Source: Globomyces pollinis-pini (Eukaryota; Chytridiomycota; Chytridiomycetes; Rhizophydiales; Globomycetaceae). Taken from it: a stretch of 64,000 nt of DNA. Shown one piece after another: positions 43,202 through 62,979 of the stretch (the stretch's first letter is position 1; each line of letters opens with the position of its first letter). The DNA lies in NCBI GenBank assembly GCA_025399215.1, contig MU621116.1, positions 1-64,000 on the forward strand, in the 5' to 3' direction. The notes beneath the pieces were generated by a model, which saw nothing but the letters and a program-made list of their open reading frames with translations, did no database searches and was not told the origin of the DNA. Position numbers and translations under genes: made by a program.

Positions 43202-43937
43202 ATGACCTACTATTCCGAGAATTACGAACAGATGCAACTTCCAGCTATTGTCTACCCGATCTCGCCAATGACCAGCTACACAACACAGGAACAACAGCAT
43301 TATCATTCAAGTACTGGCTACCCTACATATCATTCGCAATATTACTCTCATGGTTTGACTGGCTCAAACTCCAACTATCATTCAATGGATGATATTTTGA
43401 GAGATATCTTTGTTCCAATTCAAGTACCTGCACATCAGCAACCTACCCAAGAACGTATACCCTATGATAGTTATCCAACATCTAATGATCCTTCTGATTC
43501 TCCTTTGGATAGTCCACCATATACAAACTCTATTGGGTCACCACTTGAGTCGTTGAAGCATGATCAATTTGAGGATGATTCACTGGATAAAGCTTCTAAA
43601 GCTGTGTATCGATGCACACATGAGAATTGCACCAAAGGTAAGATTCTATCATCATTAACGTGTTAGCTTATAGCAGACAGTATACATTGAAAATGCATGT
43701 CTCAACAGTTCATGAAAAGTACCGCCCATTCCAATGTGATTTTAATGGATGCACAAAATCTTTTGCTAGACGTCATGATTTGAAGAGGCATAAAAATATT
43801 CACAAGTAAGCTTTCACATTTTCTTATCCCATAGTGTTGAAGGAAAGTATAGCTGTCATCATTGTTCTGAAAGATTTGCGAAAAAGGACCAACTGAAGTC
43901 CCATATAAAGTCAGGGCATATCGCTCACAACCATTAG
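43202..43937 (+). CDS. Short C2H2 transcription factor, DDIL family (member 1)
   Basis: Three exons, about 225 residues. The Tyr/Ser/Gln-rich N-terminus carries the family motif SMDDILRDIFVP at residues ~60-72. Three fingers follow. Finger 1 is split by a phase-1 intron of 29 nt, between C-x4-C-T-K and A-Y-S-R. Finger 2 has FARRHDLKRHKNIH. Finger 3 starts after a second intron and is C-x2-C-x12-H-x4-H, the only member whose last ligand is His. The linker after finger 1 is VHEKYRPF rather than TGEKP. Likely a nuclear DNA-binding regulator; targets unknown. Confidence 0.85.
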
Positions 43938-44848
43938 TTTAATAATCATTGAATATATTTATTTTAGATAATGTAAGAACTGTTTTCAGTGTTTTGACAG
44001 ATCATGATTGACAAGAAGTCACAGTCAACATTCATGAACCTTCTTCCTTCATTCGCTCCATCATGTATGCAATTTGTCCTTTGGATCGCTGAACGACTGT
44101 AGTTGGCTATTAAAGTGTCACTGTTTAAAGAGTTGTCCTTTCAGTTCCTTACATGAGTCTTGAAATACTATGGGGTGGTAATGGATTCGTCTATGATATC
44201 CCCAACAAACATGGTATGACATCGTGTGTGTAATCCATTCAATGATATCATGGGAATTGACGACATTGCTTTCTTGAACGACACTTGCTTAGTCAAATCT
44301 TGGCTTCGTTTGAAAGATCTTACCAATTGCTTTTACACCAAAGAAGCCGAAATGTGTACACTTTAAAATTCGTTGTGCAGGTGGTATTGAACCTGTTAAC
44401 AACGCATTCTTTGTGAACTGCCTCAATTCTGTTTTTTTTTTCATTACGATTAACTGATTCTCGAGATCCCTCCGTAAACGACTAGACTTGGCACTTTGTG
44501 AAACTCATGGCGTCATCTGATCTCAAAATTTGTTTCAAATGCCTTTCCCCTCAAAAAAAATAGAGATTGGGTTTGAGGTTTCATCGCAGAAAAGGGGGAC
44601 GACACCCAAATCAACGATGCAAAATGCATCAAACACACGATGCTCAATATCGTAAAGGTGTGTTGATGGAAAAGCGAAATTGTGGATGGACTCTGGCTAG
44701 TGATATCGCCCAATCAGTGTCCAAAGTTAGTCATAGTGTGTTTCATTTGTCCATTACTGTATATATAGATGGCTAGTCAGTTGTTTGTCATAGGTGAAAC
44801 AAACCGTAATATAAAAGAGTAAATTGTTTGTCACAAGTCCTCAGAGCA
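43938..44848. other. Intergenic, no gene supported
   Basis: About 0.9 kb. TATAAAAG begins at 44810, 39 nt before the next ATG. Nothing else is recognised. Confidence 0.4.
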
Positions 44849-45461
44849 ATGTCTACATATCCTTCCAACTTCTTCACGGAAGATCCTCCTAGCCCTCCGT
44901 ACACTATTTGTCCTTCAATAGCATCGTCTCCTTCATATTCCATTAGCAGTCCGGGTATGACAGGATTCAAACAAGAATTCAATCCTTTTCAGAATGCATA
45001 CACAAACATCGAAGATCTTCTACATGATGTTTTAACTCCAGTTATTGAGCATCCTTGTAGTGAAGAACGGTCCAAGAATTTGCAGTCCAACGTGGATTCC
45101 AGTCCAACAACAAACAAAGAGAAAGCTCATATATGCCCTATCAAAAGCTGTCAAAAAGGTACTTGATACCCATTTACTAACAATAGTTTATAACAGACCT
45201 TACTCTTTGAAAATGCATGTATTGACTGTTCATGAAAAATACCGTCCCTTTCGTTGTAACTATGACGGTTGCATCAAATCATTTGCCAGACGACATGATT
45301 TACTCCGACATGAAAGAATACACAGTGGTGAAAAGACATTTGTTTGTACTGGTTGCTTCAAAACATTTGGTCGTAAGGAACATCTAAAATCTCACTTTCA
45401 TTCTTCAAGATGTAAAAGTACTGGTATAATGACACCGATCAATTCAGGAAACCTTACTTAG
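44849..45461 (+). CDS. Short C2H2 transcription factor, DDIL family (member 2)
   Basis: Two exons joined by a 28-nt intron inside finger 1, about 195 residues. Family motif [12 protein letters not shown] near residue 53. Finger 1 ends [17 protein letters not shown], finger 2 has [18 protein letters not shown] (here with a classical linker and no second intron), and finger 3 is C2HC ([10 protein letters not shown] then C after five residues). The promoter has a clear TATA box 39 nt before the ATG. Confidence 0.87.
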
Positions 45462-46457
45462 ACTTACCATCATTGTACTCTATACCATTCTATAATAACA
45501 TTTTTAATTTAACTCAATTTGATTGTTTATAATTTCTTAATGCACATGAGTGTAAGGTTTTATTAATTAAAAATGAAATATTATATATCATGACCCATGA
45601 CTTCATTAATCAAAGATTAAACTACTGGTACTCGCCTGTTCTACTAAGATGAAGATATTTCGACATGTGTCGCGAAGGAGTCAAGCACATAAGTAGTGAA
45701 GTAAACCTTTAGTTCAATTGTGTGACGTATCCGTTCATTGTTGTTTTAAATTCTCATAGTTATTAAAATAAATGAGAGCCGATTTATCCAGGTCCCAGTC
45801 TATCCTTTGTTGTACCATTTTTTGATCAATTTCAGAACGTTTTCTATTGAAGTATTATTAAATATAAAATGAATTCAGCCAGTTATTTTATTAACATTTC
45901 CTTCTGACTGTCATTTGAAGTCAGTTTATTTTGAGAAAACAATTAAACATGTCGCATGACTTTTAGAGCAAATAACCTATTAGCCTGCTTTCTATCAATA
46001 CAAGTTCAAAGAGAGAAACTTGCAGTTTTTCCTATGATGTAATTTTGAGAATTGAAAAGATTAGTACAAATCACACAGGGGCTTTATCATTCATTCTATG
46101 ACTAATCTGATTAATACAAGATGAAGAATCTTGTACTTCAAAAAGTTGTTTGTAGTTAGTTCCCCTGAAAACAGGAGTCCCAAATTGCCATCGGTCCGAT
46201 TGTAACTAGATAGTTTTTAAATGCAATATCATAAAAGTCGTCAACATTTAACCGCACAATCATTTAAATTAAAACCTTATGATTATGATCCGCAAATTTT
46301 CAGATTAATGTTGATTGTTAATCCAAAGTATATGAACACGTATCGTTTAGGACCCGAATCCCAAAGCCATGAAAAAAAGTCATCACATTTAAACCCACAA
46401 TCGTTTTGTATAAATACAGAATTCTATCGCTTTTTATCCCATTGTAATAAATCTATC
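45462..46457. other. Intergenic, no gene supported
   Basis: About 1 kb, AT-rich. It contains an upstream in-frame ATG at 46221 discussed with the next gene, and TATAAATA at 46409-46416. Confidence 0.4.
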
Positions 46458-47072
46458 ATGGTTTTGAATAGTTATTCCTTCACTGAATCTCCTCAATCAT
46501 CGACATCTGACACACTTGATTATCAAACTCCATATTACCAGAACAATAATTTCAATTCGCTGACAGATCTACTGCTAAAATGTCCATATAGAAGCGTAGA
46601 TGAAATTTTGATTGATGTACTAAAACCAACCTGTTTCAATACCCAATCTCAAATACCATATGTGCCGCTTTCTAACCAAAACGATAAATTTCATACCAGC
46701 ACTCCATTTTATCCACAAATTGAACACCATACAGTCATCAAAAGATACTTTTGCAGTTTCGATGGGTGCAGGAAAGGTAACAGAAAATCAATACCTAAAG
46801 ATAGGCTACACTCGTGCATGTAGTTTAAAAAAGCATATCAAAACCATCCATGAAAATTTAAAGCCATTCGAATGTGAATACAAGGATTGTGAACAAAAGT
46901 TTGCAAGGAAACATGATCTAAAACGACACTTACAAACACACACGTAAGCTATCCCGTTTATCATTTTTTGATTTGTAGAGGTGAGAGGACGTTTGGATGC
47001 CGTCATTGCCCTAAACGATTTTCAAGAAAGGATCACCTACAAACTCATTTGAAGTCATTGGCTTGCTTGTAG
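46458..47072 (+). CDS. Short C2H2 transcription factor, DDIL family (member 3)
   Basis: About 185 residues from ATG 46458, which lies 49 nt after TATAAATA. An in-frame ATG at 46221 would add 79 residues of unusual composition, and I think it is upstream of transcription. The family motif is SVDEILIDVLKP. Three exons: the 28-nt intron 1 splits finger 1 at the family position, and a 35-nt intron sits between fingers 2 and 3. Finger 2 is FARKHDLKRHLQTH; finger 3 is C2HC with FSRKDHLQTH. Same predicted role as its neighbours. Confidence 0.83.
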
Positions 47073-48044
47073 TCCTGGTTGGAAAATCAAATATAATTTA
47101 TTGAAGTGTCATACTTTGTGTCAAATAAGGTTTCTTTTCAGCTCAGAACTAGCTTGGCATGCCAAGAATTGGTTTATTGTAGCATAACATTAGTTGAGGC
47201 CCAGGGTTTAGGGGGATTAAAATTTACCCGTTGGGATTCTCCCATTTGAATGGTAGAGATTTGTGGTCTTCGATCTCATTCAATTACAATTGTCGATTAC
47301 CCAAATCTAGTAGGTAGATATTCTCTGTGTTCGGCAATACCAGCCTGAAGCAAAGTCGCATTCCAGGTGTAAATTTTATAAGATAGTTCTTTGTAATCAA
47401 ATTAAGGTGCCAAAAACGAGTACCTTTCTAAGTTTTTCAAGAGGCTTTTTCGTGTCAAATATTATCGTGCATGTCTGCTTACGTCACAAGAAGTGAGTTC
47501 AATAGCGATTGAACAATAATCGATTTTTCAAATTTGTGGTTGGAATAGTGATTGAAGCCTGATTGAACCGCTAGTGTTCTTATCACTGCTGGTGACAGTT
47601 CTGAGTCAGATCAAATATGGCTGTAATACGACTATGATTCACACAACCATTGTATGAATAATCACTATCTGCTTTGTATACCTCAAATGCTTATGAGCTG
47701 GAGCTCTCACAAAAATCATTAAATTGAAATACTTTTAAACTCTTTATTAATTTTGTTGAATTTTGATGATAAGAGAAAGCTTATAGATCTGTAAATTTGA
47801 TACATATACGAAATTTTAAAAGTAAAAAGAAACTTCGCTTTAAGTTGTTACTAAACAAGGATTTTGATGTTTGATGGTCCCATTTGATTGAACTAGAAGG
47901 GACTGGTGAAACCTAAACGCATGGTAGTCTCACTGTGCTTGAACAGCACATTGTCACACTAACCCATATAACTTACAATAACTCAATGTAAAAAGACATG
48001 ACTCATTCGGGCTCTTTTATATTGAGTTATTCCTTATTCACTAA
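47073..48044. other. Intergenic, no gene supported
   Basis: About 970 bp with no long frame, repeat or RNA gene recognised. It holds the promoter of the next gene. Confidence 0.4.
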
Positions 48045-48075
48045 ATGAGCTCCGCAGCTCAAACCCATTTTTTTA

Positions 48076-48752
48076 ATGAAATTCGTATTAAAAAAGTTGA
48101 TAGGATGGATCTCCTTTGTCTGAATTGGGAAATGAAAATGAAATTGACATGTTTCATGTTCCTTTTGATTCGAATTGGGACAGTTGTGAAACAACGAAGA
48201 ACATTAAAAAGACCATGTTTAAGGCTTGACCTAAATATGAAAAAACCTATGGTCCAACTCCCAAGCCCATTCCAGTCACCACCCTCAACGTTAGAAAGTA
48301 ATGCTCTCACATTGGATTTCCAAAACCTAACGATGGGCAATCAAGAACGGTCTCCAGCACCTTCACCCTTTTCTGGTGCTGACCAACAAGAGTATCCTTG
48401 GGGATTAAGCAACCATAATACCAATAACTGTGAATCTCTGGATGATATTTTACAAGACGTTTTAAAGTCTGATCGGGATTTGGAATCCTTAACTGGTTCC
48501 CCATTTTCGTTAACAGACTGGGAAGATATTTGCTATTCGACAGCATTGCTAGGTGCTAGCAGGAATAGAGGAGATAAGCGATTGGGAAAACTGAATTCCA
48601 ATAATATTGGTGCTAGTGCAAGAGTGCACAAACGATCCAAAGGCTTAGCCTCCAAAGGTTATGATGAACATTCTATATACCCAAACAAAAGAAAAGTACA
48701 AAATTGCGAAGAGTCGGATCAGCAAAATTGGTTTTTTGACGCCTTCCTGTAA
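48076..48752 (+). CDS. DDIL-family member lacking zinc fingers (member 4)
   Basis: The 3' exon carries the family motif SLDDILQDVLKS and, 20 residues on, DWEDICYSTALLGAS, shared with the next gene (DWEDLCYSTALPRAS). It then ends with basic segments (KRSKG, NKRKV) and no finger. One continuous frame runs from ATG 48045. However, its first ~70 codons look non-protein-like, while another frame over 48104-48216 reads acidic and natural (DGSPLSELGNENEIDMFHVP). A model starting at ATG 48076 with introns 48085-48103 (19 nt, very short) and 48217-48265 (49 nt) joins everything in frame. A third option is to start at ATG 48237. It may be a co-regulator that competes for the motif's partner. Confidence 0.6.
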
Positions 48753-49253
48753 CTTTATTAATGTAGATACCGTAACTTTTAATATATCCTAGTTTATAAT
48801 CAAAGTAAGAAGTGACTTATTTACAGTACCCAATTAAGTGAGTAACTATTTATATACCACGAGCATTTCGATGTTCGCTCAGTTTGATATTGTACCAACA
48901 ATTTCTGGCAACGCAGGCCATCTGTTAGAATGGATCCCTAAATTGGTTGTGGATGAATAATAGTTAAGCCCTTTTTCTACAGCCTTTTTTTGCGATGTCC
49001 AAGAAAAAGAAACGCCCAATTTTTAATGCATCCAGAGATTCAGGTCCATTCAGAGGGGAATCAAACGTTAGTATCCATTATTGTAAGAGTTTGAGTGAAT
49101 AAAATGATGGTGTTTCTTTTGGCTTGAACAGTATTTAAAGCGGAGCGTTTTAGAGTCTCATGATTCAATCTCGATTAAGGTGCTGCTTTTCACTGCTTTT
49201 CAAACACAACACCCAAAAAATATATAAAAGAGAACTGGAAATTGTTCCACCTT
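48753..49253. promoter_or_regulatory. Upstream region of zinc-finger member 5
   Basis: 501 bp. TATATAAAAG at 49221-49230 lies only 24-33 nt before ATG 49254, implying almost no 5' leader. Confidence 0.5.
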
Positions 49254-50356
49254 ATGCAACATCAACATTGTCAACAATGTCCTCCAGCTAGAGAGCAATA
49301 CTATAGTCCACACCACCAATACTCATATCCCGACAGTAGAAGGGGAGTAATGGATCATTGCAATCCACATAGTATATCGCAAAGTCCTAGAGAACATTAT
49401 TATAGCCCAAAAGAACATTATTATAGCCCAAAAGAACATTACTATAGCCCAAAAGAACATTACTATAGCCCAAACCCCCATTATTCATATCCAGAACAGA
49501 GCAATAGAGTGTATTCTTCCCAAAAGATTCACTTACCATCACCAAATTCAACTCCAACTTATCCTTCCTCTCATCCTTCCGAAGGCATTACAAGATCAGT
49601 TCAAATTATTCAATACAACCCCGCTCCTATTATCCGAAAACCAGAAGTGTATGAACCATACTCAAAGCCAGCTCCTCATTTACCATCACCAAATAACACC
49701 CCAACCAACCAAACCTTTAAACCTGCTGATGCTCCTCCTCGTGAGATACAAAAGTTCAGTTTCTATAGTAAAGCTAGCTTTCCCAATCAGTCCCTTCACA
49801 ATATTTTGAACGATGTGTTGCGAACGGATGAGAAGCAGCAGAATAAAGAAATTGAACCCCACAAAGGAGATTGGGAAGACTTGTGTTATTCAACAGCACT
49901 TCCTAGAGCGAGCAAGCAATTTGCACCTTTGAATGTTGAGCCTTCGACAACACCCAAAAGCCTGAATTCCTTCACTTGCTCATATGTAAACTGTGGAAGA
50001 TGTAAGCCGTATTTACAACTAACTGTTTAGCCTATACAAGATTACATACTCTAAAATTGCACATTTTAACTGTACACGAAAACATTAAACCTTATGCTTG
50101 TAAATATCAAGGTTGTTCAATGTCTTTTGCACGGAATCATGATTTAGTGAGACATAGCCAAGTTCACAGGTAATTCATTTACATGTAATTAACCTTTAGT
50201 GGTGTTAAAAAATTCAGTTGTGAAATATGTGATAAACATTTTGCCAGACGAGAACATTTGCGAAGCCATTTTCAAAGTTCAAGATGTAAACGGATGAAGT
50301 CTATCCTAGAACAATCACAAACTAGAGGCCACGATAGTTACACATACAGTATGTAA
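49254..50356 (+). CDS. Short C2H2 transcription factor, DDIL family (member 5)
   Basis: Three exons, about 345 residues; ATG 49254 is just after a TATA box. The first 90 residues are His/Tyr/Ser/Pro-rich with four HYYSPKE heptads. Two LPSPN words follow, then the family motif SLHNILNDVLRT and the DWEDLCYSTAL block shared with member 4. Finger 1 is split at the family intron (C-x4-C-G-R-S | Y-T-R). Finger 2 is FARNHDLVRHSQVH; a 30-nt intron precedes finger 3, C2HC with FARREHLRSH. The shared block suggests members 4 and 5 arose by tandem duplication. Confidence 0.87.
49392..49475 (+). repeat. 21-bp coding repeat (HYYSPKE) in member 5
   Basis: Four near-perfect copies of a 21-bp unit encoding EHYYSPK, differing by single silent changes. 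Confidence 0.85.
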
Positions 50357-50457
50357 TATACATCGTTTTTAAATATACTATTTAAACTTAATTTTGCCAT
50401 TCATTATAAAGTAAGATATAACATTTTATTCAAAAGACAAGCATAGATAAAGAAAAC

Positions 50458-50841
50458 TTAGTTTGATTGATACTTAGTGACAGCCTTGGTACCTTCAGAC
50501 ACAGCATGTTTCGCAAGTTCTCCAGGTAAAATCAAACGTACAGAGGTTTGAATTTCTCTTGAGGAGATAGTTGATCGCTTGTTGTATGATGCTAGTCTGG
50601 AAGCTTCTTCAGCAACTCTTTCAAAAATATCATTCACAAAAGAGTTCATGATGGACATTGCTTTGTTTGAAATACCAGTGTCTGGATGAACTTGTTTGAG
50701 CACTTTGTAAATATAAGTATTGAACGTTTCCTTCCTGGTCTTCTTCTTTGTTCGGACACCAGCTTTGGTTTGCTTTTCTGCTGTTTTAGCTGGTGCTTTT
50801 CCTGCTGGTTTTTTTCCTGCTGATACTTCTTTTGGTGGCAT
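50458..50841 (-). CDS. H2B: Histone H2B
   Basis: 127 residues, intronless as usual for histones. A Lys/Ala-rich tail is followed by the H2B fold: [78 protein letters not shown]. The C-terminal AVTKY lysine is the conserved ubiquitylation site. It is divergent from the hydrolase gene; no H2A is in the window. Confidence 0.97.
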
Positions 50842-51017
50842 CTCTGTATTTGTTTTCCCAAATTTTGTAGTTTATATCATCAAAGACTGTCACAGTCACA
50901 ATCGCGCGATTTCATTGGTCAAAATAGAAGGATATGATTGGTTGATTGAAACCTGGAGTGTGGCAGACTCAAAACCATCTAATTTGATTCGTGTGATTTC
51001 TCACTGTCTAAGCAAGA
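50842..51017. promoter_or_regulatory. Compact divergent promoter, H2B / hydrolase
   Basis: Only 176 bp separate the two ATGs. It contains GATTGG/CCAAT-like words near 50909 and 50937, which often flank histone genes. Confidence 0.45.
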
Positions 51018-51881
51018 ATGGACTTCACCACGTTTAGAGATAAAGCGATAGAAGCCAAAGCTACTGTCCCAGAACCCAAATTTATTGATAGTGATGGCAT
51101 CTCACTTGCTTACCGTGTGTATCCTGCAAAAGAAGCTAAAGCTATTCTTCTTTTCTACCATGGCGGTGGTGCGCATAGTGGTGGAGGCTATCCAATTCTG
51201 GCCAACAAACTCTCTGATACTGGAATAACAGTATATACTCCTGATATTCGTGGTCATGGTGAATCAAAAGGAGAAAGAGGAGACACGCCTTCAAAGACAC
51301 AGATTTGGAAAGATGTCGACAAAATGATTCAATTGGTAATTTCTGAGCAACCAAATCTTCCTCTTTTCCTTGGTGGTCATTCTTCTGGTTGTGGCATGCT
51401 ATTAAACCACTCAAGCTTTACGAAAGAGAGTAATATTACAGGATATATATTTTTGGCTCCTCAGTTTGGATTTCGGTCAAAAACATTAAAGCAGAGTGAA
51501 TCTCCATTCGCAGTTGCCAAAATTCCACTATTTGCATTTAACGCCATGTCATTTGGACTTCTTTTTGGTCACAGCAATGCTGTTACGTTTAACTACCCAG
51601 ATTCAGTATTAGAAGATAAGCGGTATGTTCAATTTAACACAGTGGAGATGGCGAACGCGCTCACACCGTCCAATCCGTTCTCTCAGTTTGAAAAAATCAA
51701 TTGTTATGGTCTATGGATTGGGGAAAATGATGAAGCTATAGATGCTCAAAAGGTTGTGGAAATGCAAAAGCTCAATACCAATGGAATCTGTGAAATTGTT
51801 CCCAAAGTAGCTCATTTAGAAATCATTCTTGATTCTGCTTCTTACATTGGCCCTTTCATTATTAGCAAAATCTCAAGTTGA
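51018..51881 (+). CDS. Alpha/beta hydrolase, monoacylglycerol-lipase/S33 type
   Basis: 287 residues, intronless. LLFYHGGGAHSGGGYP supplies the oxyanion loop, PDIRGHGESKG is typical of monoacylglycerol-lipase-like enzymes, GGHSSGCG is the nucleophile elbow, IGENDEAID holds the catalytic Asp, and the His is in KVAHLEI. Cytosolic lipase or esterase; substrate unknown. Lack of introns in an intron-rich genome, together with the HGGGAHS form, leaves room for bacterial origin, but other local genes are intronless too. Confidence 0.85.
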   Translation: MDFTTFRDKAIEAKATVPEPKFIDSDGISLAYRVYPAKEAKAILLFYHGGGAHSGGGYPILANKLSDTGITVYTPDIRGHGESKGERGDTPSKTQIWKDVDKMIQLVISEQPNLPLFLGGHSSGCGMLLNHSSFTKESNITGYIFLAPQFGFRSKTLKQSESPFAVAKIPLFAFNAMSFGLLFGHSNAVTFNYPDSVLEDKRYVQFNTVEMANALTPSNPFSQFEKINCYGLWIGENDEAIDAQKVVEMQKLNTNGICEIVPKVAHLEIILDSASYIGPFIISKISS

Positions 51882-51966
51882 ATATCAGACAGGTTTACCA
51901 TTCCAATGGATACAAATACAGATTAAAAATATATATTAACAATAGAATAAAGGTTGTTACAAGAAA

Positions 51967-53102
51967 TTAAATGACTATTTTGTCACGACAAGATTTAGAT
52001 TTTTCATGGGTTTTTAAATGCTCTTTTCTTCCAAATGATTTTGAACAATGTGGACAATAAAAATCTCGAACTCCAGAGTGAGTTTTCAAGTGTCGCTCTA
52101 AATCATGACGTCTTGCAAACCTTAAATGACAAGATCCAGCTTCACATTTAAATGGTTTGATATTCTGATGGACGGTTTTAATATGTAGTTTCAATGTATA
52201 TTTCTGAAAGTATGCTACGTTTGTTAATTGAACGATTTCATTACCTTTGTCACATCCTGGCTCACGGCAAACAAATTGCTTTTCATTATTCTCTCTAGTA
52301 TTATCTTGTGCCTGATGGGCGGTTTTCATGTGTACATTCAAACTATACTTTCTTGTGTATTCTAAATCATGGTCAATATAAAAAAAAACATACCTTTGCT
52401 ACAACCAGGAATATCACATTTGAAACTGTTGGCTGTGGGCAGATTAGTTGTTGGACTTTGTGAAATTTGACCAAGTCCAAGTTGGAAAATGTCTTCATCA
52501 ACACAAGGTGATATATCGTGTAAGATTTCATCAATGCTATCGTATTGGAAATTGAAGGACTGCATTGGTTCAATCGGTTGATTTTCGAAGCTTCCAAAGG
52601 ACACAGGCGAATCTTGATAGTAGGGCTGACTGCAAATTGGACTAACGAATTGTGATAGTGGATCCATTAGCAATGGCGAAGAGGAGTTGGATGGTTGAGG
52701 TGAGGGCATAAAAAACAATGACTGTTCATAAATGTTACTTTGGTTGAGGTTTGGCGAATAACCATACACGGATAGATTTGGAGACAAGTAGTGTGAAGCA
52801 GCTGAATTATTTTTACCAATAGATAAATCAGGGGATGTGCAAAAGGTGGATTCGTTTGAGGTTAAATTAAAAGTGCACTGTGAATTGAGAGATTCGGCAT
52901 TTTGCGTCTTTTCGTATTGATCAGTCAAGATTAACATGTCACTGGATAGATACATACTGGTTGTCATATTTAAGAGAGTAACTAAAACACCCACTTTGGT
53001 GAGCTTAAGTACAAGAATGTGTAAGATGGGCTTGATCTTTGGGCTTTGTCCATTTGCAGAATATCCCAAATTTTTGAATATCAGTTGCTGGTTTTTCTCC
53101 AT
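51967..53102 (-). CDS. C2H2 transcription factor, DDIL family, four fingers (member 6)
   Basis: About 355 residues from ATG 53102; an in-frame ATG at 52967 is a possible alternative. A Ser/Pro/Asn-rich region leads to the motif FQYDSIDEILHDISP. Unlike plus-strand members it has an extra N-terminal finger (C-x4-C-S-K | EYTRKYSLNVH), so four in all. Both of the first two fingers are split by introns at the same family position. The second of these introns (30 nt) has a length divisible by three and no stop, so retention would insert ten residues. Finger 3 is FARRHDLERHLKTH, joined directly to C2HC finger 4, [10 protein letters not shown]. Confidence 0.86.
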
Positions 53103-53452: not shown

Positions 53453-54773
53453 TTAATCATATATAATAGGCAAACTTCGTTGATCTTTACATTTTCGGGA
53501 TTGCAAATGAGATTTTAGATGCTCTTTCCTTCCAAATCCTTTGGAACACGATTGGCAATAAAAACTCTTCTCACCACTAAAATATTATATAACTTGATTA
53601 TTTACCTGTGTGTCTTTAAATGTCTTGAAAGGTCATGCTGCCTTGAAAATCGCATTTTGCAACCTTGTTGGTCGCATTTGAATGGTTTTATCTGATTATG
53701 AACGCTGTTGATATGTAGCTTCAATGTGTATTTTTGGTTGTATGCTTCAAAGGTTATTGATATAATGACTTACATTTGTCGCAACCGGGAATAGTACATC
53801 GAAAAACTTTGTGCTGACTTTCCTCTTGTGAAGAAGGGCTATTCTGTTCATGTGTAGTCTTTATATGTAATCCTAAACTGTATTTTCTTGTATATACTTT
53901 ATCACAACCAATATAGGTACAAGGCCAAGGTTTGTTTGCACTTTCATTATCTGTAATTGATGTTTCTTGCAACTGCTGTGTTACTTCGGATGAAGAATCT
54001 GTTTGACCAGAAGCAACTACATGATCCATATTATAAATATCCAAATCAGCCATTGGGTCGATTGGAGATAAATTATCCAATATATCGTCTATACTATCAT
54101 ACTGGAAATTAAAATTAGACTCTATTTTCTTTCTTTGAAGTTGTTGATTATCATTTGAAATATAAGGACTAGTTATGAATGGACTAGTTATAAATGGGCT
54201 AGAGATGAATGGTGTATCCACATGAGGTGTTCCCATTTGTGGAGTTCCGATTTGAGGAGTTCCAATATGAGGAGTTGTTGAGTACATATTTCCAATATAT
54301 GGAGTGCCCATATGAGGTGTGCCGTAGGTTATAATTGGAGTTGTAGAAGAGCTAAACTGCAAATAAGGGGATTTTGTGGGCAATTTGGGTGTATTCGACA
54401 TGGGAGCTGGAGGAAGCATTGGAGTATGACTGATATAGCCATTCAGCATTGGACTGTATATGGCATTCAAGTCGACGTTAGGAGAAGCAACATAACCATT
54501 GTTATTCATAGGTGGGGTGGGCATATAATGGTTGGTATCGACACTATTCATGAATTTGCCAGAGTTTGAAATGAATTGCGGGGTTTCTAAATAAGGACTT
54601 CTATCTAGCTTATGTCCATTGGCATTGTTTTGAGAATAAAACATCTGTTGTTGGTTTTGAGTACTCAATTGCTGTTGACTAAAAGGAGCCATTTGTTGTT
54701 GAGGGGATTTAAATAGTTCTTCGACATTAAACTGCATTCCTTGCTGATTATTTGGGAAATATCCAGTATCCAT
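53453..54773 (-). CDS. C2H2 transcription factor, DDIL family, four fingers (member 7)
   Basis: About 420 residues, the longest member. The N-terminus is Gln/Asn/Pro-rich, with many short GTPH/IGTPQ words encoded near 54190-54320. The motif FQYDSIDDILDNLSP is almost the same as in member 6, its tandem neighbour. Finger 1 is uninterrupted here (C-x4-CDKVYTRKYSLGLH), while the intron is kept in finger 2, and a 29-nt intron lies before the last finger. Finger 3 is FSRQHDLSRHLKTH and finger 4 is C2[12 protein letters not shown]. Members 6 and 7 are recent duplicates. Confidence 0.87.
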
Positions 54774-55278
54774 AGTAAAAATAATCTTAGAGAAAGAATC
54801 CCTTTACTTCACTTTAAGTGGCTGCAGCTTAAGGCTTTTTCAAGGGACCTGAGGCTTTCTAGCCCAAACGACACATAATCGAACTTGGATGGTGAATTCA
54901 ATCCATGGACACTTTAATCTACAGTTTGTTTTTCGTTCATGTCTTTCTTGTCACTTTGTACAAGTACGCGTTACAGAATTGAAATGAAACACTTGAAAAA
55001 AAGAGTCAGATGGTTTCAGTACCAAAACAATTGCCTTGGATTTTCATTGATTATGGATGTCTACTTTAGACAGATGGTGGATAGGTGTCTAATATTGACT
55101 CATTTATGGATGATGTCTGATATTAATTGATTATGGATGTTTGATCCTAATAATGCCAAGGTTTCATGTCTGATGAAAGCTCACACATAAAGTTTTTTTT
55201 TTCGCCAAGGCCACTTTGCACTTGCATGGAGATGTTTGATAAATACAGGTTTATTATGATTATGTTGTAATTTTTACG
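54774..55278. promoter_or_regulatory. Upstream region of member 7
   Basis: 505 bp between member 8's stop and member 7's start; no further gene seen. A diverged direct repeat (GATTATGGATGTNT) occurs at about 55048 and 55131. Confidence 0.4.
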
Positions 55279-56391
55279 CTATTTGTTACGCAAGCATTTC
55301 CTAGATTTTTGATGGGATTTCAGATGCTCTTTTCTTGCAAATGATTTTGAACAACTGTAGCATGGATAGTTTTTCTCTCCTGTATGTGTAGTACTGTGTC
55401 TAACAAGATCATGTCTTCTAGAAAAGGCCATTTTACAACCAGCATGGTTACATAAAAATGGTCTGATATTATTATGAACACTATTTATGTGTAATTTAAG
55501 GGTATGTTCTCTTGTATAAACTATGGATTAGTCGATATCTTACAATTACCTCTATTGCAACCTTCAATTGGACACATAGATAAATCTTTAGGACTAGCAT
55601 CTTTTGAATTTTGTTCATTTTCATGTACAGTTCGATAGTGCATTTTTAAGGTGTACTTTCTTGTATAAACTAGAAACGTTAGTTGTGAAAAGCATGTTAC
55701 CTTTTTGACAACCTTCTACTGGACAGGTCCAGGTTTGATTTTGTTCATCAGATTGAAGCATGTCAATGTTTTGATGTCTTTTCTGACACTGAGAGACATT
55801 GTCTTCTTCAATGGGATAACGTGATTCAAAAGTTTGGATATCGGATTGGAAACTGACTGGAGAGATATCATTCAAAAAGTCATTGAATGAACTGTATTCA
55901 AACGGTTCAGGATAGTATGATGGAGAGTTTTCAATTTGAGTATTGTATTGATGAGATGGTGTTGGAGACAATACATAACTATTGTTTGAAGGGACTGGTG
56001 ATGTGCCCATATATTGCATATGCATAGGATTCAAGTGGGATGGGGAAACCATTTGTGGGCTATTTGGGGATGGCAAGTGAGAGACAGAGGACACGAAGAT
56101 AGGAACACCGGAATATGGTTCAGGGGAGATATGATTAGATTGATAATCCAATTGAGTTGGTGATCGCACAAAGTGATTGTCCACTGACACATTTGGTGTG
56201 ATATAAGGCATATCAACAGGAGAGGATAAATGAGAAGTAGAAGCGAGCAACTGTGGATCAAAGAACCAGTCAGAGTGTGAATTAGAATTCTTTTTTGGAT
56301 AAGGTAAAATCATATCTGCCTGTAAACGAGTGTTATTAGATTGATGGTATGAATTTTGATGCGTATAGGCATTAGAGTAATGATGTGACAT
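55279..56391 (-). CDS. C2H2 transcription factor, DDIL family, four fingers (member 8)
   Basis: About 350 residues, ATG 56391, with TATAAAAG (reverse of 56424-56431) about 40 nt upstream. The Ser/Pro/His-rich N-terminus has the motif SSFNDFLNDISP. Fingers 1 and 2 are both split by introns at the family position (C-Q-K | VYTRKYTLKMH and C-N-R | VYTREHTLKLH). Fingers 3 and 4 are continuous: FSRRHDLVRHSTTHTGEK, then [10 protein letters not shown] with the C2HC ending. It groups with members 6 and 7 by its four-finger plan and strand. Confidence 0.87.
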
Positions 56392-56808
56392 TTAATTGGT
56401 TCCAAATGTCATCCCCCTCTTTGCTTTTATACGGGTCATCTGTTGTGTCTCTGTTTCAAAAAAAAAAGATCCCTCGCTCAACCGCAAGGTCAAATAGTTC
56501 TATGGTCTTTGAAAGGATACATTTTTCAAGGGGCCTACTGCACCCAACTGTTGCTGCACCCCAAAATACAGCACAAAAAGTAAGATTAGCATCATTCTCC
56601 TTGAAAGCAGTAAATTTTGTTAATCAGAAAATGTTTGTATTTAGCGGATTTGGTAGTTGCTTCTTACTTTGAGGTTTCTGAGCACTTTCACATTTCCACT
56701 TAAAGGCAGGCTGTGGGGACTTTGTCTCCATTATGGCTCCCAAATACTTCAAAAGTCTTATCAAATCAATACGGGCCGTTTTATAAAATGCTTATATTGT
56801 TTATATAA
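56392..56808. promoter_or_regulatory. Upstream region of member 8
   Basis: 417 bp; contains the TATA element at 56424-56431 (minus). No gene seen. Confidence 0.4.
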
Positions 56809-57837
56809 TCACAAAGTCTCCAACTTCGTTTCATTGTAGTATGTGGTAATCTCACCCACAATTTCGGCTTCAGGTGTTGCTAAAATCCAATCATCCATCC
56901 CAGGTCCTTTATGTTCTTTAAAATTTTTAATAAAGGTTCCAAGATCTTTCCCAGTGTACGATGTAATTTGTTCCACGATTTTCCCATTGTACTTTGACTT
57001 CAGCAATTTGACACGCTGTTGTTGCTTTATCAACTGTTCATATGCATGTAGTTGATTAAACGTGATCAGAATAGTTTTCAGTTCAGATAATGTTAAACCA
57101 TACGTCTTCGAAAGACTCAACTGGTCGAAATCTGCCAAAACTTCAGTGTCTTGATCTCTCAGCCATTCAACCATTTTCTTATACATGGGTCTGTGCGCAT
57201 GCATATCTAATTTCTTCTTTGAGTCAAAGATAGAACGTTTGAATTTTGGACTACTCTGGAAAAAGAGAAAGCATTCCTCCATTGATGTGAATCCTTTTGC
57301 ATAGCGATCTGCATCAAATCCAAAGTATTTCAAAGCTACAACGGGATCTGAAGTCAGAAATAGAGGTATAAACTCTCCATGACTTGGGTTTATCTTCATT
57401 TCACTATCAGATTCTTGTCCAGAAACGAGAACACTGAGACCCTTGGGACTGAATTGATAACCATAAGCTCTGGCGAGAATTCCAATAATCATCCCAAAGT
57501 CTAGCCAATCGTAAAACATTTGACTCCAGGCCATATTTGGTATAGCAATAATGTCAATCTGTGCTTCACGATATTCAAATGACATTATATTTCCATTGAT
57601 AGATACTCCTTTTGATAATATTGAGGGATGCGTGATCGGATCAAGTTCTTGCTTGGTGCTATCTTGCACAACTAGAAAATCCACATCACCAAAATCTGCT
57701 TTCTCTGGAAAACATTTTGGTACCTTGACGTCAGAATAATATTCATTCAAGATGGGTGTCAGATATTCGATTATTTCTGTGTATTTATCTCGAGGTATCC
57801 TGTTAATGATACAATCTTTCAGCGCATTTCCACCCAT
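56809..57837 (-). CDS. Nucleotidyltransferase-fold protein, unknown family
   Basis: 342 residues, intronless. It opens with MGGNALKDC, the GG of a nucleotidyltransferase fold. Then FGDVDFLVVQD gives the paired metal-binding Asp residues, and AQIDIIAIP a third acidic strand. This is the pattern of polymerase-beta-like enzymes, with an unusually long gap between GG and DVD. The middle (YGYQFSPKGLSVLV) and the C-terminal helices have no recognised domain. The first residues leave almost nothing before the GG motif, so an earlier exon is possible. Substrate and role unknown. It differs from poly(A) and CCA-adding polymerases. Confidence 0.65.
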   Translation of the reverse strand: MGGNALKDCIINRIPRDKYTEIIEYLTPILNEYYSDVKVPKCFPEKADFGDVDFLVVQDSTKQELDPITHPSILSKGVSINGNIMSFEYREAQIDIIAIPNMAWSQMFYDWLDFGMIIGILARAYGYQFSPKGLSVLVSGQESDSEMKINPSHGEFIPLFLTSDPVVALKYFGFDADRYAKGFTSMEECFLFFQSSPKFKRSIFDSKKKLDMHAHRPMYKKMVEWLRDQDTEVLADFDQLSLSKTYGLTLSELKTILITFNQLHAYEQLIKQQQRVKLLKSKYNGKIVEQITSYTGKDLGTFIKNFKEHKGPGMDDWILATPEAEIVGEITTYYNETKLETL

Positions 57838-58294
57838 TCCAAGATATCAAATGAAGAAAAAAAAATGTTTTTATAGAAATATTGTGACTGGAATGACTCC
57901 GCCAACAAGATTTGTAAAATTCTCACTTTGACCTACTTCTACATTCTAGGAGTTTAATTTGGTATTCCCAATCTGGAAGTCCCTAGTCAGTCCCAAGGTC
58001 AAAGTGGAAAACTCACGTCTCACAATTTAATACTCCATGTGTGTGACGCCCTAAACTTAATAAATCTTACGTAATTCAGGTACGACGCCCTAACATTAGT
58101 AATTGCCGTTGCTTTCTTTTGTCTCAGAACACCACATTAAACATGACAGTCCCCACAATACTTCTAGTGAGTAAATGCTTCGTATCGAATAGTATCTCCG
58201 CCAATGCAGTTCAAAAGCTCATTGATTAACAATAGCAGAACATAGATATTGTCATGAAGTTGTTTTTTAAAAGTATATTTTATTGAATGACACA
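57838..58294. promoter_or_regulatory. Upstream region of nucleotidyltransferase gene
   Basis: 457 bp. GACGCCCTAA occurs twice in direct orientation at 58045-58054 and 58084-58093, start to start 39 bp apart, a possible factor-binding site. Otherwise nothing seen. Confidence 0.4.
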
Positions 58295-59314
58295 TTATAC
58301 AGTAAGAACTATCTTTCCAACGGTGCGATTAGATTCAGATTGCAAATGTGCATCTACTCCATTTTCAATCTTAAAGCTATGATTCACGATGGATTTTACT
58401 TCTCCTGATTTCAATAAATCATCAAGGATTTTTGGAAATTGGTTAGGCAATGCTGAAATGAATTTGTAACTAGTTCTTCCAAACAAATATCTAGGACCAA
58501 TAGTCAACCCCATTCCAATTATTGTACCAAATGTGAGCGGTCCATGGCCTCCATGCTCAACCGGACCTGCTGCAGTACTGTATACCCCACCTTTGGTTAT
58601 AAATGGTTCCGTAGTTTTCCAATAATCATCCCCACCAACACAATCCACAACGATATCATAATGTTGATCAAGAGTTGTTAATGCATCTTTTATGTCCTGT
58701 TTCTTGTAATCAATAAGGTGATCTGCGCCAAGTGATTTGACAAATTCAACGTTGGCAGTGGAACAGATACCAGTAACATTAGCTCCTAACGCTTTTGCCA
58801 ATTGCACAGTCCAATAACCAACACCACCAGATGCACCAATGACAAGCACTTTCTTTCCGTCATTTTTCTCTAATTTACCATGTTCAACCAATGCTACAAA
58901 TGCGGTAAATCCAGTGACACCAACAGCTGCTGCTTCTTCAAAAGATAAATTTGATGGTTTTAGTAAAAGAGGATCTTTCTTTGTATCCACTTTAATAAAT
59001 TCAGCATATGATCCATTTGAATTTGGAGTTCCAAGTTTACCATACACTTCATCCCCAATTTTAAAACCATGAACATTTTCACCAACCGAATCCACAATAC
59101 CAGCAAAGTCAATTCCAAGGATAGCAGGCATATTCATTTTCAGAGCAATTTGAAGATATCCTTTACGAATTTTGAAATCAACTGGATTGACACCTGCAGC
59201 TTTTACTTTGATTATCAGTTCATCTGATCCTTGAATGACTGGCTTTTCAATATCTTCATACTTCAAATTTTCTGCAGGACCATATTCATGAATTACTAAC
59301 GCTTTCATTGACAT
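58295..59314 (-). CDS. Medium-chain dehydrogenase/reductase, quinone-oxidoreductase type
   Basis: 339 residues, intronless. It begins MSMKALVIHEYGPAENL. AAGVNPVDFKIRKG and LGIDFAGIVDSVGENV are the GroES-like domain signatures. VLVIGASGGVGYWTVQLA is the NAD(P)-binding loop. It lacks the Cys/His zinc ligands of alcohol dehydrogenases, so it belongs with zeta-crystallin/quinone reductases that use NADPH to reduce quinones or enones. A second in-frame Met two codons later could serve as start. Confidence 0.9.
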   Translation of the reverse strand: MSMKALVIHEYGPAENLKYEDIEKPVIQGSDELIIKVKAAGVNPVDFKIRKGYLQIALKMNMPAILGIDFAGIVDSVGENVHGFKIGDEVYGKLGTPNSNGSYAEFIKVDTKKDPLLLKPSNLSFEEAAAVGVTGFTAFVALVEHGKLEKNDGKKVLVIGASGGVGYWTVQLAKALGANVTGICSTANVEFVKSLGADHLIDYKKQDIKDALTTLDQHYDIVVDCVGGDDYWKTTEPFITKGGVYSTAAGPVEHGGHGPLTFGTIIGMGLTIGPRYLFGRTSYKFISALPNQFPKILDDLLKSGEVKSIVNHSFKIENGVDAHLQSESNRTVGKIVLTV

Positions 59315-59504
59315 TTTTACAATCCTAGAAGCTTCATCCGCTTCTTTTTATAGAAATTTAAATTTTCCCTCAGAGTTTTTCCAGTACGGCCATTACGCAC
59401 CACACACTACGTGTTATCGTACGGCCGGCTAATAACCATGAATTATCACATCATTATGAATTAGGATTAAAAATTGTCAGGAGTTTTCAGTGATTATATT
59501 ATCG

Positions 59505-60343
59505 TCATGCACTAACACTGTTTACCGCATCATTCATGATCGAAATAGCTTCCTTTGGATCTTTATGTCCAAATATTCCTGTTCCAGAAACAATAACATT
59601 AGCTCCACTTTTGCTAACGATATCAATGTTATCTACACCAACTCCCCCATCTACTTGAATATCCAAATCAGGGAATTGTTTTCTTAATGCCGCTACTTTA
59701 TTTAAGCAACTCAACATTATTTTTTGACCTCCGAATCCTGGTTCTGAAATATGTTAGACCAATAAGATTTACCAACGGTCATGATCAATATCATATCAAC
59801 TTTTGAGCAAAATGGAATAACAGTTGAAATATCAGTTTGAGGTTTTAAAGCGATTCCAACTTTCATTCCAGAAGCTTTGACTTTATCAATTAAATCATCT
59901 GCATTTTCTAGAGAATAAAAATATCAAGTAATTACTGGTAGCTTCAATATGAAAAGTAAAGTTATCTGCACCGGCCTTAGCGTAATCGTCTACCCACTAA
60001 CCATCAATATTCATTCATTTACTTGTTCTGGATTTGTTACCATCAAATGGCAATCTAGTTTAATTAATCATCACATTGGTTGGTTACCAAGAAACATATC
60101 AGTGTGTTTCCTGAGGCATTTAATAATTGGAGCACCTACACATGAATTACAAGATCCTAACCAAGCGTCAAGTTTGGGACAAAATGACCGTCCTAAATAA
60201 TTTGTAAATTAAACGTTGAGACAACATACCATCACATCCATATGCAAATAATGCGCTCCACATGCCTTCATTCTTGCTGATTCATTTGCTAAATCTGCAA
60301 AATCAGACGAGAGCATTGATGGACAAATCTTGGCTTTTACCAT
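59505..60343 (-). CDS. RPE1: Ribulose-phosphate 3-epimerase
   Basis: Interconverts ribulose-5-phosphate and xylulose-5-phosphate in the pentose-phosphate pathway. Seven exons, joined through introns of about 26-37 nt, give roughly 220 residues. Motifs: MVKAKICPSMLSSDFADL, YLHMDVM-DGHFVPNLTLG (catalytic Asp and metal His), DCHLMVTNP, FHIEAT, EPGFGGQKIM, and QVDGGVGVDNI with the second catalytic Asp. The window thus holds two enzymes of the non-oxidative pathway (with transaldolase), but they are 47 kb apart. Confidence 0.92.
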
Positions 60344-60475
60344 TGTTGTGATATTTGTGGTTAAATTAAAAAAAATTGAATTTGTGGGCTTTCGTACTCA
60401 GCCAATCTAAAACTCAGTGAGGAGCGCTTAAATTGCATTACAATTTATTTAAAGACAAAACAAACTAATAGCTGT

Positions 60476-61280
60476 CTATTCCGCTAAAATTAGCATCGAA
60501 AGTATCGAACCTTTGCCTGCTGGAGATCTGGAACGACGATCATCTCTGCGATCATCCCTGCGATCGTCTCTTCTACGATCATTTGAACGAGACCTATTTC
60601 TTCGGGGTGGTGTACGGGAACGGGAACGAGAATCGCGTCTGTGAAGGTCAATAACGGATACAGTAGAGGATAAGTGGCAATGGAATGTAAAGTCTGGAAT
60701 TCTCAGCATATGCATGGCAGACAAGAATCGGATGGGTAACGACCGGAGAGGAATACTCTTTTAGGAATGGCCCGCATATAGCAGAAATATTTACCTTCGT
60801 CTAGGACTACGATCACGATTTCGGTATCCGCTAATGATGAGTAACAAAATATCTTACCCATCAGGACAATCTCTAGCCCAGTGTCCAGGTTTACCACACT
60901 TGAAGCAATCAGATGATCTTTCATCTCTATCATCTCTACGCTCACGACGACCACCACCTTTAGCGTATTCGACGACAATTCGGTGACCGAATAATTCAAA
61001 CTATCACTGGTTAGTGTTGAAAGGGTATACTTCTTTTTCCTCATGAGCTTTTACAACATCATCAGCATCCCTTTTATCTTCGAATTCAACGAATCCAAAG
61101 TTATAAGATTGACCGTTCTTTATATCACATCTTTTTATGAACTGTTGCAAAAATAATACCTGGAAATACGTCCGTATTTCTCAAAAATCCCTTCCAGATC
61201 ACTGCTTCTAGCATCTAAACGTTCCAATAAGTTCAAATTTTGAATATACCTGTTGGAATTCTACCAATGAATAGTGCCAT
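60476..61280 (-). CDS. SR-type splicing factor: RRM, CCHC zinc knuckle, RS tail
   Basis: ATG 61280 begins MALFIGRIP (RNP2). RNP1 reads YNFGFVEF. The RRM is followed by a Gly/Arg-rich linker, the zinc knuckle CFKCGKPGHWARDC, and an RS/RD tail (RSRSRTPPRRNRSRS, then RRDDRRDD repeats). This is the SRSF7 / plant RSZ22 plan. Most introns are 27-37 nt. One in the RS region, 60639-60794, is about 156 nt. The last candidate intron (27 nt, before the stop) is stop-free and divisible by three, so the tail may end either K-A-E or with nine extra residues. It acts in the nucleus in splice-site choice. Confidence 0.87.
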
Positions 61281-61334
61281 TTCGAAATGAAAAACGAAAA
61301 AAAAAACTTTGATCAAAATTCAATGTCAATATTT

Positions 61335-61865
61335 TCAATTTGTGTATTTCAAAACAACTACTCTAGAAAGCATGACTAAATCAACTAAAATAGGGATGAC
61401 ACTTGAATGTAAAGCTGATCTTGAATTACCTGCAGAAGAAGAATATATACCAGTAGCATCCAACAACCCATATATCAGAAACAAACATACTGAGACAAAT
61501 TGATGCGCTCGCATGTGCTAGTATGTCTTGAATTGAGTGTTATCATATCTTACATAGCGTGTTTAATCGCTTCTGAAATATGGATAAACCATAAAATATT
61601 CCAACCATCTCAATGAAAAATCCTATCCAAGTGAGTCCCAAAGCTGCTTGTATCCTTCATTTTAGTGATTGCATTGTATTACGATGAGTTCACGGCTTGG
61701 AAGTTGGAAAGGTCTCCAAGGGGTATGGAAGCTAAAACGTTGGCGTCCTATTTATTTAGAAGGAGAATATATTACTTTGGTGAAAGACACCATGATCACA
61801 AAAAGGATATGGCTAATTGTTAGCAAGAATCTTGTTGGAAGTAATGTATTGGTGACCGAAAGCAT
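61335..61865 (-). CDS. TMEM107: TMEM107, ciliary transition-zone membrane protein
   Basis: Five exons (61776-61865, 61683-61747, 61554-61654, 61430-61526, 61335-61401) with introns of 27-28 nt give 139 residues, one fewer than human TMEM107. The match is end to end: LPTRFLLTISHILFVI for the first membrane segment, DANVLASIPLG in the lumenal loop, AALGLTWIGFFIEMVGIFYG for segment two, ILAHASASICLSMF for segment three, CYWYIFFFC, and VIPILVDLVML for segment four. TMEM107 is part of the MKS module that gates the cilium base. Short plus-strand frames here are shadows. Confidence 0.88.
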
Positions 61866-62379
61866 AATAAATCACGCTAATTTGTAAACAAACTTTTCCA
61901 AAAATTTCAAACAACATCATTAATCACAACGACATCATTAGAATGTGCTTATGTTCTGAATAATGACACTTTAAAGAAGATCACTTCGGAAGATACCAAA
62001 AAACATCGAAATTTGTGGGAGATCCACTTGCCCCTCCGTTTCAGCTATTTTAATTAGCTCGCTTTGAACTAAGGAACTACTGCCTTTGAAAGGGTAGAAT
62101 GATTATCGCGCTCAACGACTTGGTATTAATAGTCATTACAATAAATTCAATATGAATTGAATATAAGGTATAGACCAATATGCTAAGTTTCAATCTCAGC
62201 TTGAATCTGAAAAAAAATTACCCTAAAAATTGAATAGTAGTAATAGACGTATGTTGTAATTCATGATTATGTCCCTTTCATTACAGAGTTGGGTGTTCGC
62301 GTTGGACCATGCAAACAAACAACGGCCAAATTAAAAGTATAAATCCTGAAACCAATACTTACAGGTCGTAAAATAGTAC
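61866..62379. other. Divergent intergenic, TMEM107 / zinc-finger member 9
   Basis: 514 bp; AT-rich; no gene seen. An AAAAGTATAAATCC-like TATA element near 62333-62343 lies about 40 nt before ATG 62380. Confidence 0.45.
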
Positions 62380-62979
62380 ATGTGCGTTGGTGATGTCATT
62401 ATCAATAATCAAACCACATTCCCAGAAGACTCCACTGAATGTTACTTGAATAATCCATTCTCTTTCACATACAACAATGTTGAAGATATACTAAATGATA
62501 TTTTGGATTGTCCTACTGAGATCGGATCCGAATCTTCAAGTCCAAGTTCTGGTAAAGCTGAAAATGCTCAGTACACATTTTCTAAAGACCGGCAATTTAC
62601 GTGCTCATTTGAAGGATGTGGCAAATGTAAGTAAAGATATTGTTCATTGGACAGCATATACACGTTTGTTTACATTAAAGTTACACATTAAAACCATTCA
62701 TGAAAACATCAAACCTTACAAATGCACATTTGATGACTGTACTTTAAGTTTTTCCAGAAGGCACAACTTGATACGACACACTAAAGTTCACAAGTAAATA
62801 GCATCGCTAATGATAGAGGTGATAAGATGTTTTCATGCGATACTTGTATGAAATCTTTTAGCAGGAAAGAGCATTTAAATTCCCATTTAAAGTCAAGAAA
62901 ATGTCAACAGGCTAGAAAATCAATATCCAGTTTGACACGCTTTGATCATACCCTAATACAATACCTTCAATGGAAATGA
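62380..62979 (+). CDS. Short C2H2 transcription factor, DDIL family (member 9)
   Basis: Three exons, about 180 residues, the smallest member. The family motif NVEDILNDILDC is at residues ~33-44. Finger 1 is split at the family intron (28 nt) between C-x4-C-G-K-S and Y-T-R. Finger 2 is FSRRHNLIRHTKVH. The next intron, 62794-62816, is only 23 nt. Finger 3 is C2HC with FSRKEHLNSH. About 30 residues follow. It stands 12 kb from members 1-5, separated by members 6-8 and housekeeping genes. Confidence 0.87.

What the first reader, a model, noticed from the sequence alone, without database searches (positions are those of the whole stretch)
43202..62979. Nine-gene zinc-finger family defined by an undescribed acidic-hydrophobic motif
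All nine genes share one short motif ahead of the fingers: [105 protein letters not shown]. The rest of each N-terminus is disordered and not conserved. A helix with one acidic and one Ile/Leu/Val face is what a transactivation or corepressor-docking motif looks like. So many copies in 20 kb suggest a lineage-specific expansion of regulators that use one common partner. I know no named family with this pairing; novelty is inference.
Basis: partly seen in the sequence, partly recalled or inferred. Interest (0 to 1): 0.82.

Follow-up and report, generated by a model that had tools for sequence, protein, structure and literature searches.

The report
Chytrid zinc-finger family with shared helix
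A chytrid fungus carries clustered DNA-binding zinc-finger genes that keep one short acidic, greasy helix-like motif, probably a plug that lets them recruit the same partner for switching genes on.

Summary
The motif is real: nine copies at the stated places. Eight of the nine genes carry it ahead of C-terminal C2H2 fingers. The ninth (48045-48752) has the motif but no fingers. The genome is Globomyces pollinis-pini, a chytrid. A second cluster on contig C38 holds six more finger genes; a profile trained only on the window's nine finds the motif in six of six. Seven other finger genes of the genome lack it, one of them 9 kb beyond the window. Among the 177 proteins listed by three homology searches, only Globomyces or window-encoded ones carry it; those searches have limited reach. 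The fingers are of a known kind, near Swi5/Ace2/KLF. The motif matched no Pfam or NCBIfam family and no solved structure. All 15 copies fit phi-x-x-phi-phi, the pattern of KIX-binding activation helices, and resemble the CREB KID helix (SYRKILNDL, post hoc). The same genome encodes a Med15 KIX domain. Best reading: a lineage-specific set of activators docking on Med15 or a similar coactivator. The docking is inferred, not shown.

The parts
43202..43937 (+). Gene A, 225 aa, exons 43202-43637, 43667-43805, 43835-43937; motif + 3 fingers (public P0058)
43382..43408 (+). motif SMDDILRDI
44849..45461 (+). Gene B, 194 aa, exons 44849-45158, 45187-45461; motif + 3 fingers (public P0059)
45005..45031 (+). 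motif NIEDLLHDV
   Evidence: only helix outside the fingers in the model of gene B, low confidence
46458..47072 (+). Gene C, 183 aa in my model, 262 aa in public P0178 (start further upstream); motif + 3 fingers
46593..46619 (+). motif SVDEILIDV
48045..48752 (+). Gene D, ORF of 235 codons (true start uncertain); motif and a DWEDxCYSTAL block shared with E, but NO zinc finger
48435..48461 (+). motif SLDDILQDV
49254..50356 (+). Gene E, 347 aa, exons 49254-50001, 50031-50169, 50200-50356; motif + 3 fingers (public P0057, BC833DRAFT_618061)
49791..49817 (+). motif SLHNILNDV
51967..52967 (-). Gene F, 312 aa; motif + 4 fingers
52512..52538 (-). motif SIDEILHDI
53453..54773 (-). Gene G, 420 aa; motif + 4 fingers
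54069..54095 (-). motif SIDDILDNL
55279..56391 (-). Gene H, 350 aa; motif + 4 fingers
   Evidence: P0001 is an unspliced ORF over its first exon
55864..55890 (-). motif SFNDFLNDI
62380..62979 (+). Gene I, 182 aa, exons 62380-62626, 62655-62793, 62817-62979; motif + 3 fingers
62476..62502 (+). motif NVEDILNDI

Best explanation
A lineage-specific family of sequence-specific transcription factors in the chytrid Globomyces pollinis-pini. SHOWN by sequence: 14 genes in two tandem clusters carry a three-finger C2H2 domain and, 31 to 182 residues ahead of the first finger, one conserved core, mostly S/N-phi-[D/E]-[D/E]-[I/L]-L-x-D-phi, preceded by Y-x in 12 of 15 copies. A fifteenth copy lies in a gene without fingers. 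INFERRED: the core folds into a short amphipathic helix on binding and docks on one shared coactivator, most likely the KIX-type activator-binding domain of Mediator Med15. Each paralogue would then recruit the same machinery to nearly the same DNA sites, because base-contact residues are nearly the same, while expression and phosphorylation of the variable N-termini set when each acts. The finger-less copy D could compete for the partner.
For: Motif generalises: window-trained profile finds 6 of 6 C38 paralogues, shuffle p <= 0.0035. Protein-level constraint: at position 1 Ser is written TCN in 10 and AGY in 3 genes; at position 6 Leu by four codons. Amphipathic: best 11-mer of the whole N-terminus in 7 of 15, among the ten best in 13 of 15. 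phi-x-x-phi-phi in 15 of 15 (my reading of the rows), the pattern the KIX review gives for KIX ligands (PMC3936767, passages). CREB pKID (sequence from PMC9067669, passage) scores 8.6 bits in the same register, shuffle p 0.007. The only helix outside the fingers in the model of gene B is 54-62, the motif. Candidate receptor present: Med15-like locus on C131 with KIX_2, E 6e-11, best PDB match Med15. Yeast Ace2, a relative in kind, needs Med15 for its targets (PMC3750046, passages). 73% of yeast activation domains bound Med15 (PMC8137143, abstract in listing). Finger-2 contacts R-H-D-R in 13 of 14 motif genes with fingers.
Against: No binding, complex model or expression data. The pKID match is post hoc (three peptides tried; MLL p 0.13, Brachyury p 0.76); pKID has R-K where the motif has mostly D/E, and 0 of 15 copies have its RRxS site. 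At least eight listed proteins of other finger families have a best window above pKID's 8.6 bits, seven of them at 10 to 13.7, so 8.6 bits is not a strong score in itself. Helix confidence is low (block pLDDT about 50). Sanborn et al. (PMC8137143, passages) find activation driven by composition rather than motifs, so a fixed motif need not mean activation. Paralogue J keeps fingers without the motif. CBP-type KIX (PF02172) and zf-TAZ gave no match by exon search (the TAZ control was silent, so absence is not shown); PF02172 also touches the Med15 region, under its cut-off.
Confidence: 0.42

Rival explanations
1. The motif is a generic acidic activation domain core of the 9aaTAD sort, binding many coactivators loosely, without one dedicated partner.
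For: Acidic plus Ile/Leu/Val content; yeast activation is mostly composition-driven and Med15 binding is fuzzy (PMC8137143, passages).
Against: Composition-driven domains need no fixed order, yet order, spacing, first Ser/Asn and sixth Leu are kept across diverged copies. Gene E has net charge zero.
Confidence: 0.22
2. The motif is a corepressor dock (eh1-like) for the Tup1/Groucho WD40 domain, and the family are repressors.
For: Superficially like eh1 (Brachyury LQYRVDHLLSA in PMC1310626, passages); Tup1 N-terminal domain present at C13:53558-53824.
Against: An aromatic residue two before the first aliphatic, as in eh1, is present in 1 of 15 (gene A, His); Brachyury eh1 scores -9.2 bits against the profile.
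Confidence: 0.13
3. The motif serves regulation of the protein itself: nuclear export signal, degron or phosphorylation dock.
For: Ser first in 13 of 15; an export-signal-like spacing in 3 of 15 (A, H, C38_26059); N-termini with 0 to 21 S/T-P sites, as in the CDK-regulated Swi5/Ace2 (recalled).
Against: Export spacing absent in 12 of 15; first Ser is Asn in B and I.
Confidence: 0.13
4. The motif is only inherited similarity among recent duplicates, without function.
For: Tandem duplicates; one origin of the motif is not rejected (p-AU 0.2).
Against: The rest of the N-terminus is poorly alignable while the motif persists with many silent codon differences.
Confidence: 0.07

Closest known systems
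Swi5/Ace2 three-finger C2H2 activators (fungi)
   Same: C-terminal three-finger block; fingers 1 and 2 CX4C as in Swi5; finger-2 helix of the RxHDLxR kind; last finger ends HX5C in 13 of 14; long N-terminus with S/T-P sites; in yeast Ace2 depends on Med15 (PMC3750046, passages).
   Different: Finger 1 is HX4H; finger 3 CX2C instead of CXC; finger-3 helix mostly RK(E/D)HL instead of REDAL; the tree separates them from Swi5 and chytrid Swi5-like rows (96/92); the shared motif. Swi5 letters are recalled, fingers 1-2 checked.
KLF/Sp family (animals)
   Same: CX4C, CX4C, CX2C spacing; KLF5 and KLF4 are the top two fold matches.
   Different: HX4H in finger 1 and HX5C in finger 3 (KLF HX3H recalled); different N-terminus; fungal.
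CREB/CREM KID helix alpha-B (KIX ligand)
   Same: S-phi-x-x-phi-phi-x-D-phi: SYRKILNDL against SVDEILKDI.
   Different: No RRxS phosphorylation site; mostly D/E at positions 3-4; zinc fingers, not bZIP; no Pfam match to the motif. Works-like at most.
eh1 (Groucho/TLE dock)
   Same: Short aliphatic-rich motif in a transcription factor N-terminus.
   Different: Aromatic spacing not met in 14 of 15.

Membership tests
C2H2 zinc-finger proteins | Pfam zf-C2H2 match | tested here: met
   8 of 8 window finger genes match PF00096 at E <= 1 (cut-off shown for gene A only, 46.8 bits over 25.2); gene D none
Swi5/Ace2 | Three C-terminal fingers with CX4C, CX4C and a last finger ending HX5C | tested here: inconclusive
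   CX4C twice in 14 of 14; HX5C in 13 of 14 (gene A HX4H); but finger 3 CX2C and finger 1 HX4H (rows; Swi5 recalled, fingers 1-2 checked against 1ncs, 1zfd)
Swi5/Ace2 | Groups with Swi5/Ace2 in a tree | tested here: not met
   Separated from Swi5 and chytrid Swi5-like rows at 96/92; short alignment, long branches
KLF/Sp | CX4C/CX4C/CX2C with HX3H throughout (recalled) | tested here: not met
   Cys spacing met, His/Cys spacing not (rows)
CREB KID | RRxS site ahead of the helix | tested here: not met
   0 of 15
CREB KID | phi-x-x-phi-phi helix core | tested here: met
   15 of 15; with D-phi after it 13 of 15 (rows)
eh1 | Aromatic two before the first aliphatic | tested here: not met
   1 of 15
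KIX ligand | Physical binding to a KIX domain | not testable with these tools
   -

The most novel reading that the evidence does not exclude
A chytrid lineage independently evolved a constitutive KID-like helix (acidic in place of the phosphorylated arm) that plugs a whole clustered family of Swi5-like zinc-finger factors into Med15's KIX domain, together with a finger-less family member that titrates the same partner.
Probability: 0.2. Interest if true: 0.6.

Novelty: new variant of a known kind. Interest (0 to 1): 0.4.

Why it matters
Linear docking motifs usually evolve too fast to follow. Fifteen paralogous copies in one genome, with little else kept in their N-termini, form a natural alignment of one motif. 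If the partner is Med15 KIX, it offers a motif-specific activator-coactivator contact outside Dikarya and animals, testable with short peptides. It would also show how a chytrid expanded its regulators while keeping DNA contacts and partner nearly constant.

Tried and rejected
Motif as part of a known domain: no Pfam or NCBIfam family besides zinc fingers and weak noise; best solved chain E 0.52 (photosystem II extrinsic subunit, chance). Literature: five motif strings gave three unrelated papers; searches on Globomyces, chytrid C2H2 expansion and Rhizophydiales zinc-finger duplication (8 of 1,520 rows shown) gave no description of the family in the listings. Opened, all as passages by 'find': PMC8778642, PMC3936767, PMC8137143, PMC1310626, PMC9067669, PMC3750046. 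Orthologues elsewhere: searches list 56, 120 (of 190) and 1 proteins. Of the 178 proteins held (177 listed by the searches and one translated here, P0177), the strict regex matches five, all window-encoded or named Globomyces; the best other row scores 13.7 bits against 17.5 to 28 for family members. The word filter limits this: one search scored one candidate, and no listed row is recognisably one of the C38 proteins. Genome-wide motif pattern: 37 hits against 20 for the reversed control; 8 are family copies, 1 is C27:71796, 28 lie elsewhere; I opened 18 of these 28, in pieces of 262 bases. CBP-type KIX and TAZ domains: none found by exon search; TAZ control silent. The C413 finger locus was not tested for the motif, because its first exon was not identified. 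The first tree lost C259 and C21 to my regex; one search added them by hand. An earlier wording of mine, that export spacing fits gene A only, was wrong: one search finds 3 of 15.
Full report
WHAT IS THERE. Nine motif copies lie at 43382, 45005, 46593, 48435, 49791 and 62476 on + and 52512, 54069 and 55864 on -. The regex written from them finds nothing else in the window or on the rest of the contig. Spliced gene models give eight proteins of 182 to 420 residues with the motif upstream of C-terminal C2H2 fingers. Genes A, B and E equal public proteins P0058, P0059 and P0057 of Globomyces pollinis-pini on a contig of the same 108,118 bases; gene C equals the last 183 residues of P0178. The models of F, G, H and I rest on my splice sites alone. 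The ninth copy, gene D, sits in a 235-codon ORF without fingers and with no finger remnants downstream. It shares with gene E both the motif and a DWEDxCYSTAL block. It may be a finger-less regulator or a decaying copy; I cannot tell.

BEYOND THE WINDOW. The finger domain of gene I finds 64 matches in the own genome (a lower bound, exon by exon). Reading the best loci gives six family genes on contig C38, plus C259:10696, C21:113940 and J, which starts at C27:73773 on the - strand. All six C38 genes carry the motif: SVDDILKDV, SVDDLFNEV, SVDEILKDI, SLDDVLGDV, SLDDILGDV, SVTDILDDL. This is an independent test: the profile was built from the window's nine only, and the best-scoring place in each C38 N-terminus is that motif, shuffle p 0 to 0.0035. 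C259, C21, J and four further finger genes (C66 twice, C18 in two pieces, C36) show no motif, shuffle p 0.23 to 0.89; exon models of the last four are incomplete. On the tree of fingers the 14 motif genes fall with J in one group (88/80). The label needs two changes on this tree, and one change in 11% of 200 bootstrap trees; holding the 14 together is not rejected (p-AU 0.2). The simplest history is one gain and a loss in J. Support is modest and several branches, J's included, are long.

IS IT CONSTRAINED? Alignment of whole proteins leaves the N-termini largely unaligned except for this block. Across 15 copies position 6 is Leu 14 times, written with four codons; position 1 is Ser 13 times, ten TCN and three AGY, two codon families that no single silent change connects. 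Position 8 is Asp 13 times. The 11-mer has the highest helical moment of the N-terminus in 7 of 15 and is in the top ten in 13 of 15; net charge of the 12-mer is negative in 14 of 15. AlphaFold2 of gene B with three relatives gives one helix outside the fingers, residues 54-62, which is the motif, at low confidence (block pLDDT about 50). The model otherwise shows an ordinary three-finger domain, best matched by KLF5 and KLF4. The motif by itself is short enough to occur by chance: a degenerate DNA pattern gives 37 genome hits against 20 for its reversal, and 2 of the 18 non-family hits opened fit the strict regex. What is special is its presence in one group of finger genes.

FINGERS. Finger spacing is CX4C-X12-HX4H, CX4C-X12-HX3H, CX2C-X12-HX5C (gene A ends HX4H). 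F, G and H add one finger in front. Predicted contact residues hardly vary: finger 2 reads R-H-D-R in 13 of 14 motif genes with fingers (gene I has Asn), finger 3 R-(E/D)-H in 13 of 14 (gene A differs). By the usual zinc-finger rules (recalled) the paralogues should bind nearly the same sites. Targets are unknown.

MECHANISM. The copies fit phi-x-x-phi-phi in 15 of 15, the pattern the KIX review gives for activator helices on both KIX sites (PMC3936767, passages). The CREB pKID sequence printed in PMC9067669 (passage) aligns in register, SYRKILNDL, at 8.6 bits, shuffle p 0.007; MLL scores 3.4 (p 0.13) and the Brachyury eh1 -9.2 (p 0.76). I chose these peptides after seeing the motif, so this is a lead, not a test of membership; family members score 17.5 to 28 bits, and at least eight listed proteins of other finger families have a best window above 8.6 bits, up to 13.7. 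A plausible receptor exists in the same genome: a partial PF16987 match at C131:39152 becomes a full KIX_2 domain, E 6.1e-11, over the cut-off, when three exons are read together, and its best solved relatives are Med15. In yeast, Med15 loss lowers Ace2 targets, and the authors postulate that Med15 transmits Ace2's signal (PMC3750046, passages). Against a purely generic acidic domain, fixed order is more than composition would ask for, given that yeast activation is mostly composition-driven (PMC8137143, passages). Tup1 is also encoded, so a corepressor role stays open, though eh1 spacing is met in only 1 of 15.

NOVELTY. Zinc-finger families expanded by tandem duplication are common. New here is a family-wide fixed linear motif not matched in Pfam, NCBIfam or PDB and not seen in the listings of four text searches. 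Of the 178 proteins held after three searches of 5.8 billion, only window-encoded or Globomyces ones match the strict regex. The word filter is coarse and showed none of the genome's own C38 proteins, so restriction to this lineage is likely, not shown.

VERDICT. A real, specific and probably functional docking motif in a lineage-specific family of ordinary DNA-binding factors; coactivator docking is the best reading, Med15 KIX the best named partner, neither shown.

Noticed in passing
43637-62817 (introns of genes A-I): The 15 introns of the eight finger genes as I modelled them are 23 to 35 bases long; the 23-base one at 62794-62816 would be very short for any eukaryote and rests on my model only.
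   Followed up: partly
48045-48752: Gene D: motif plus DWEDICYSTAL block but no fingers; possible natural competitor or decayed copy.
   Followed up: partly
49391-49474: Four near-perfect 21-base repeats coding a PKEHYYS unit in gene E; gene G has GTPxx-type and some C38 genes PSPSY-type repeats.
   Followed up: no
L014, L018, L019, L021 (C38): Four C38 members share a second block after the motif, about F(I/L)xxDM(N/K)...FS(D/E)xVTI; a regex for it hits none of the other family proteins.
   Followed up: partly
C27:73773 (-), C259:10696 and C21:113940 N-termini: The three dispersed relatives without the motif begin MQDNWLEQLFNTD, MNTWLSKLFSAS and MSMWSENIFADS, perhaps another short N-terminal element.
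   Followed up: no
window 56809-57837 -: 342-residue ORF with no Pfam match at E <= 0.001, beginning MGGNALKDCIINRIPRDKYTEIIEYL.
   Followed up: no
window 40402-41403 +: Protein kinase with an upstream membrane-like segment, PF00069 E 6e-22, beside the cluster.
   Followed up: no
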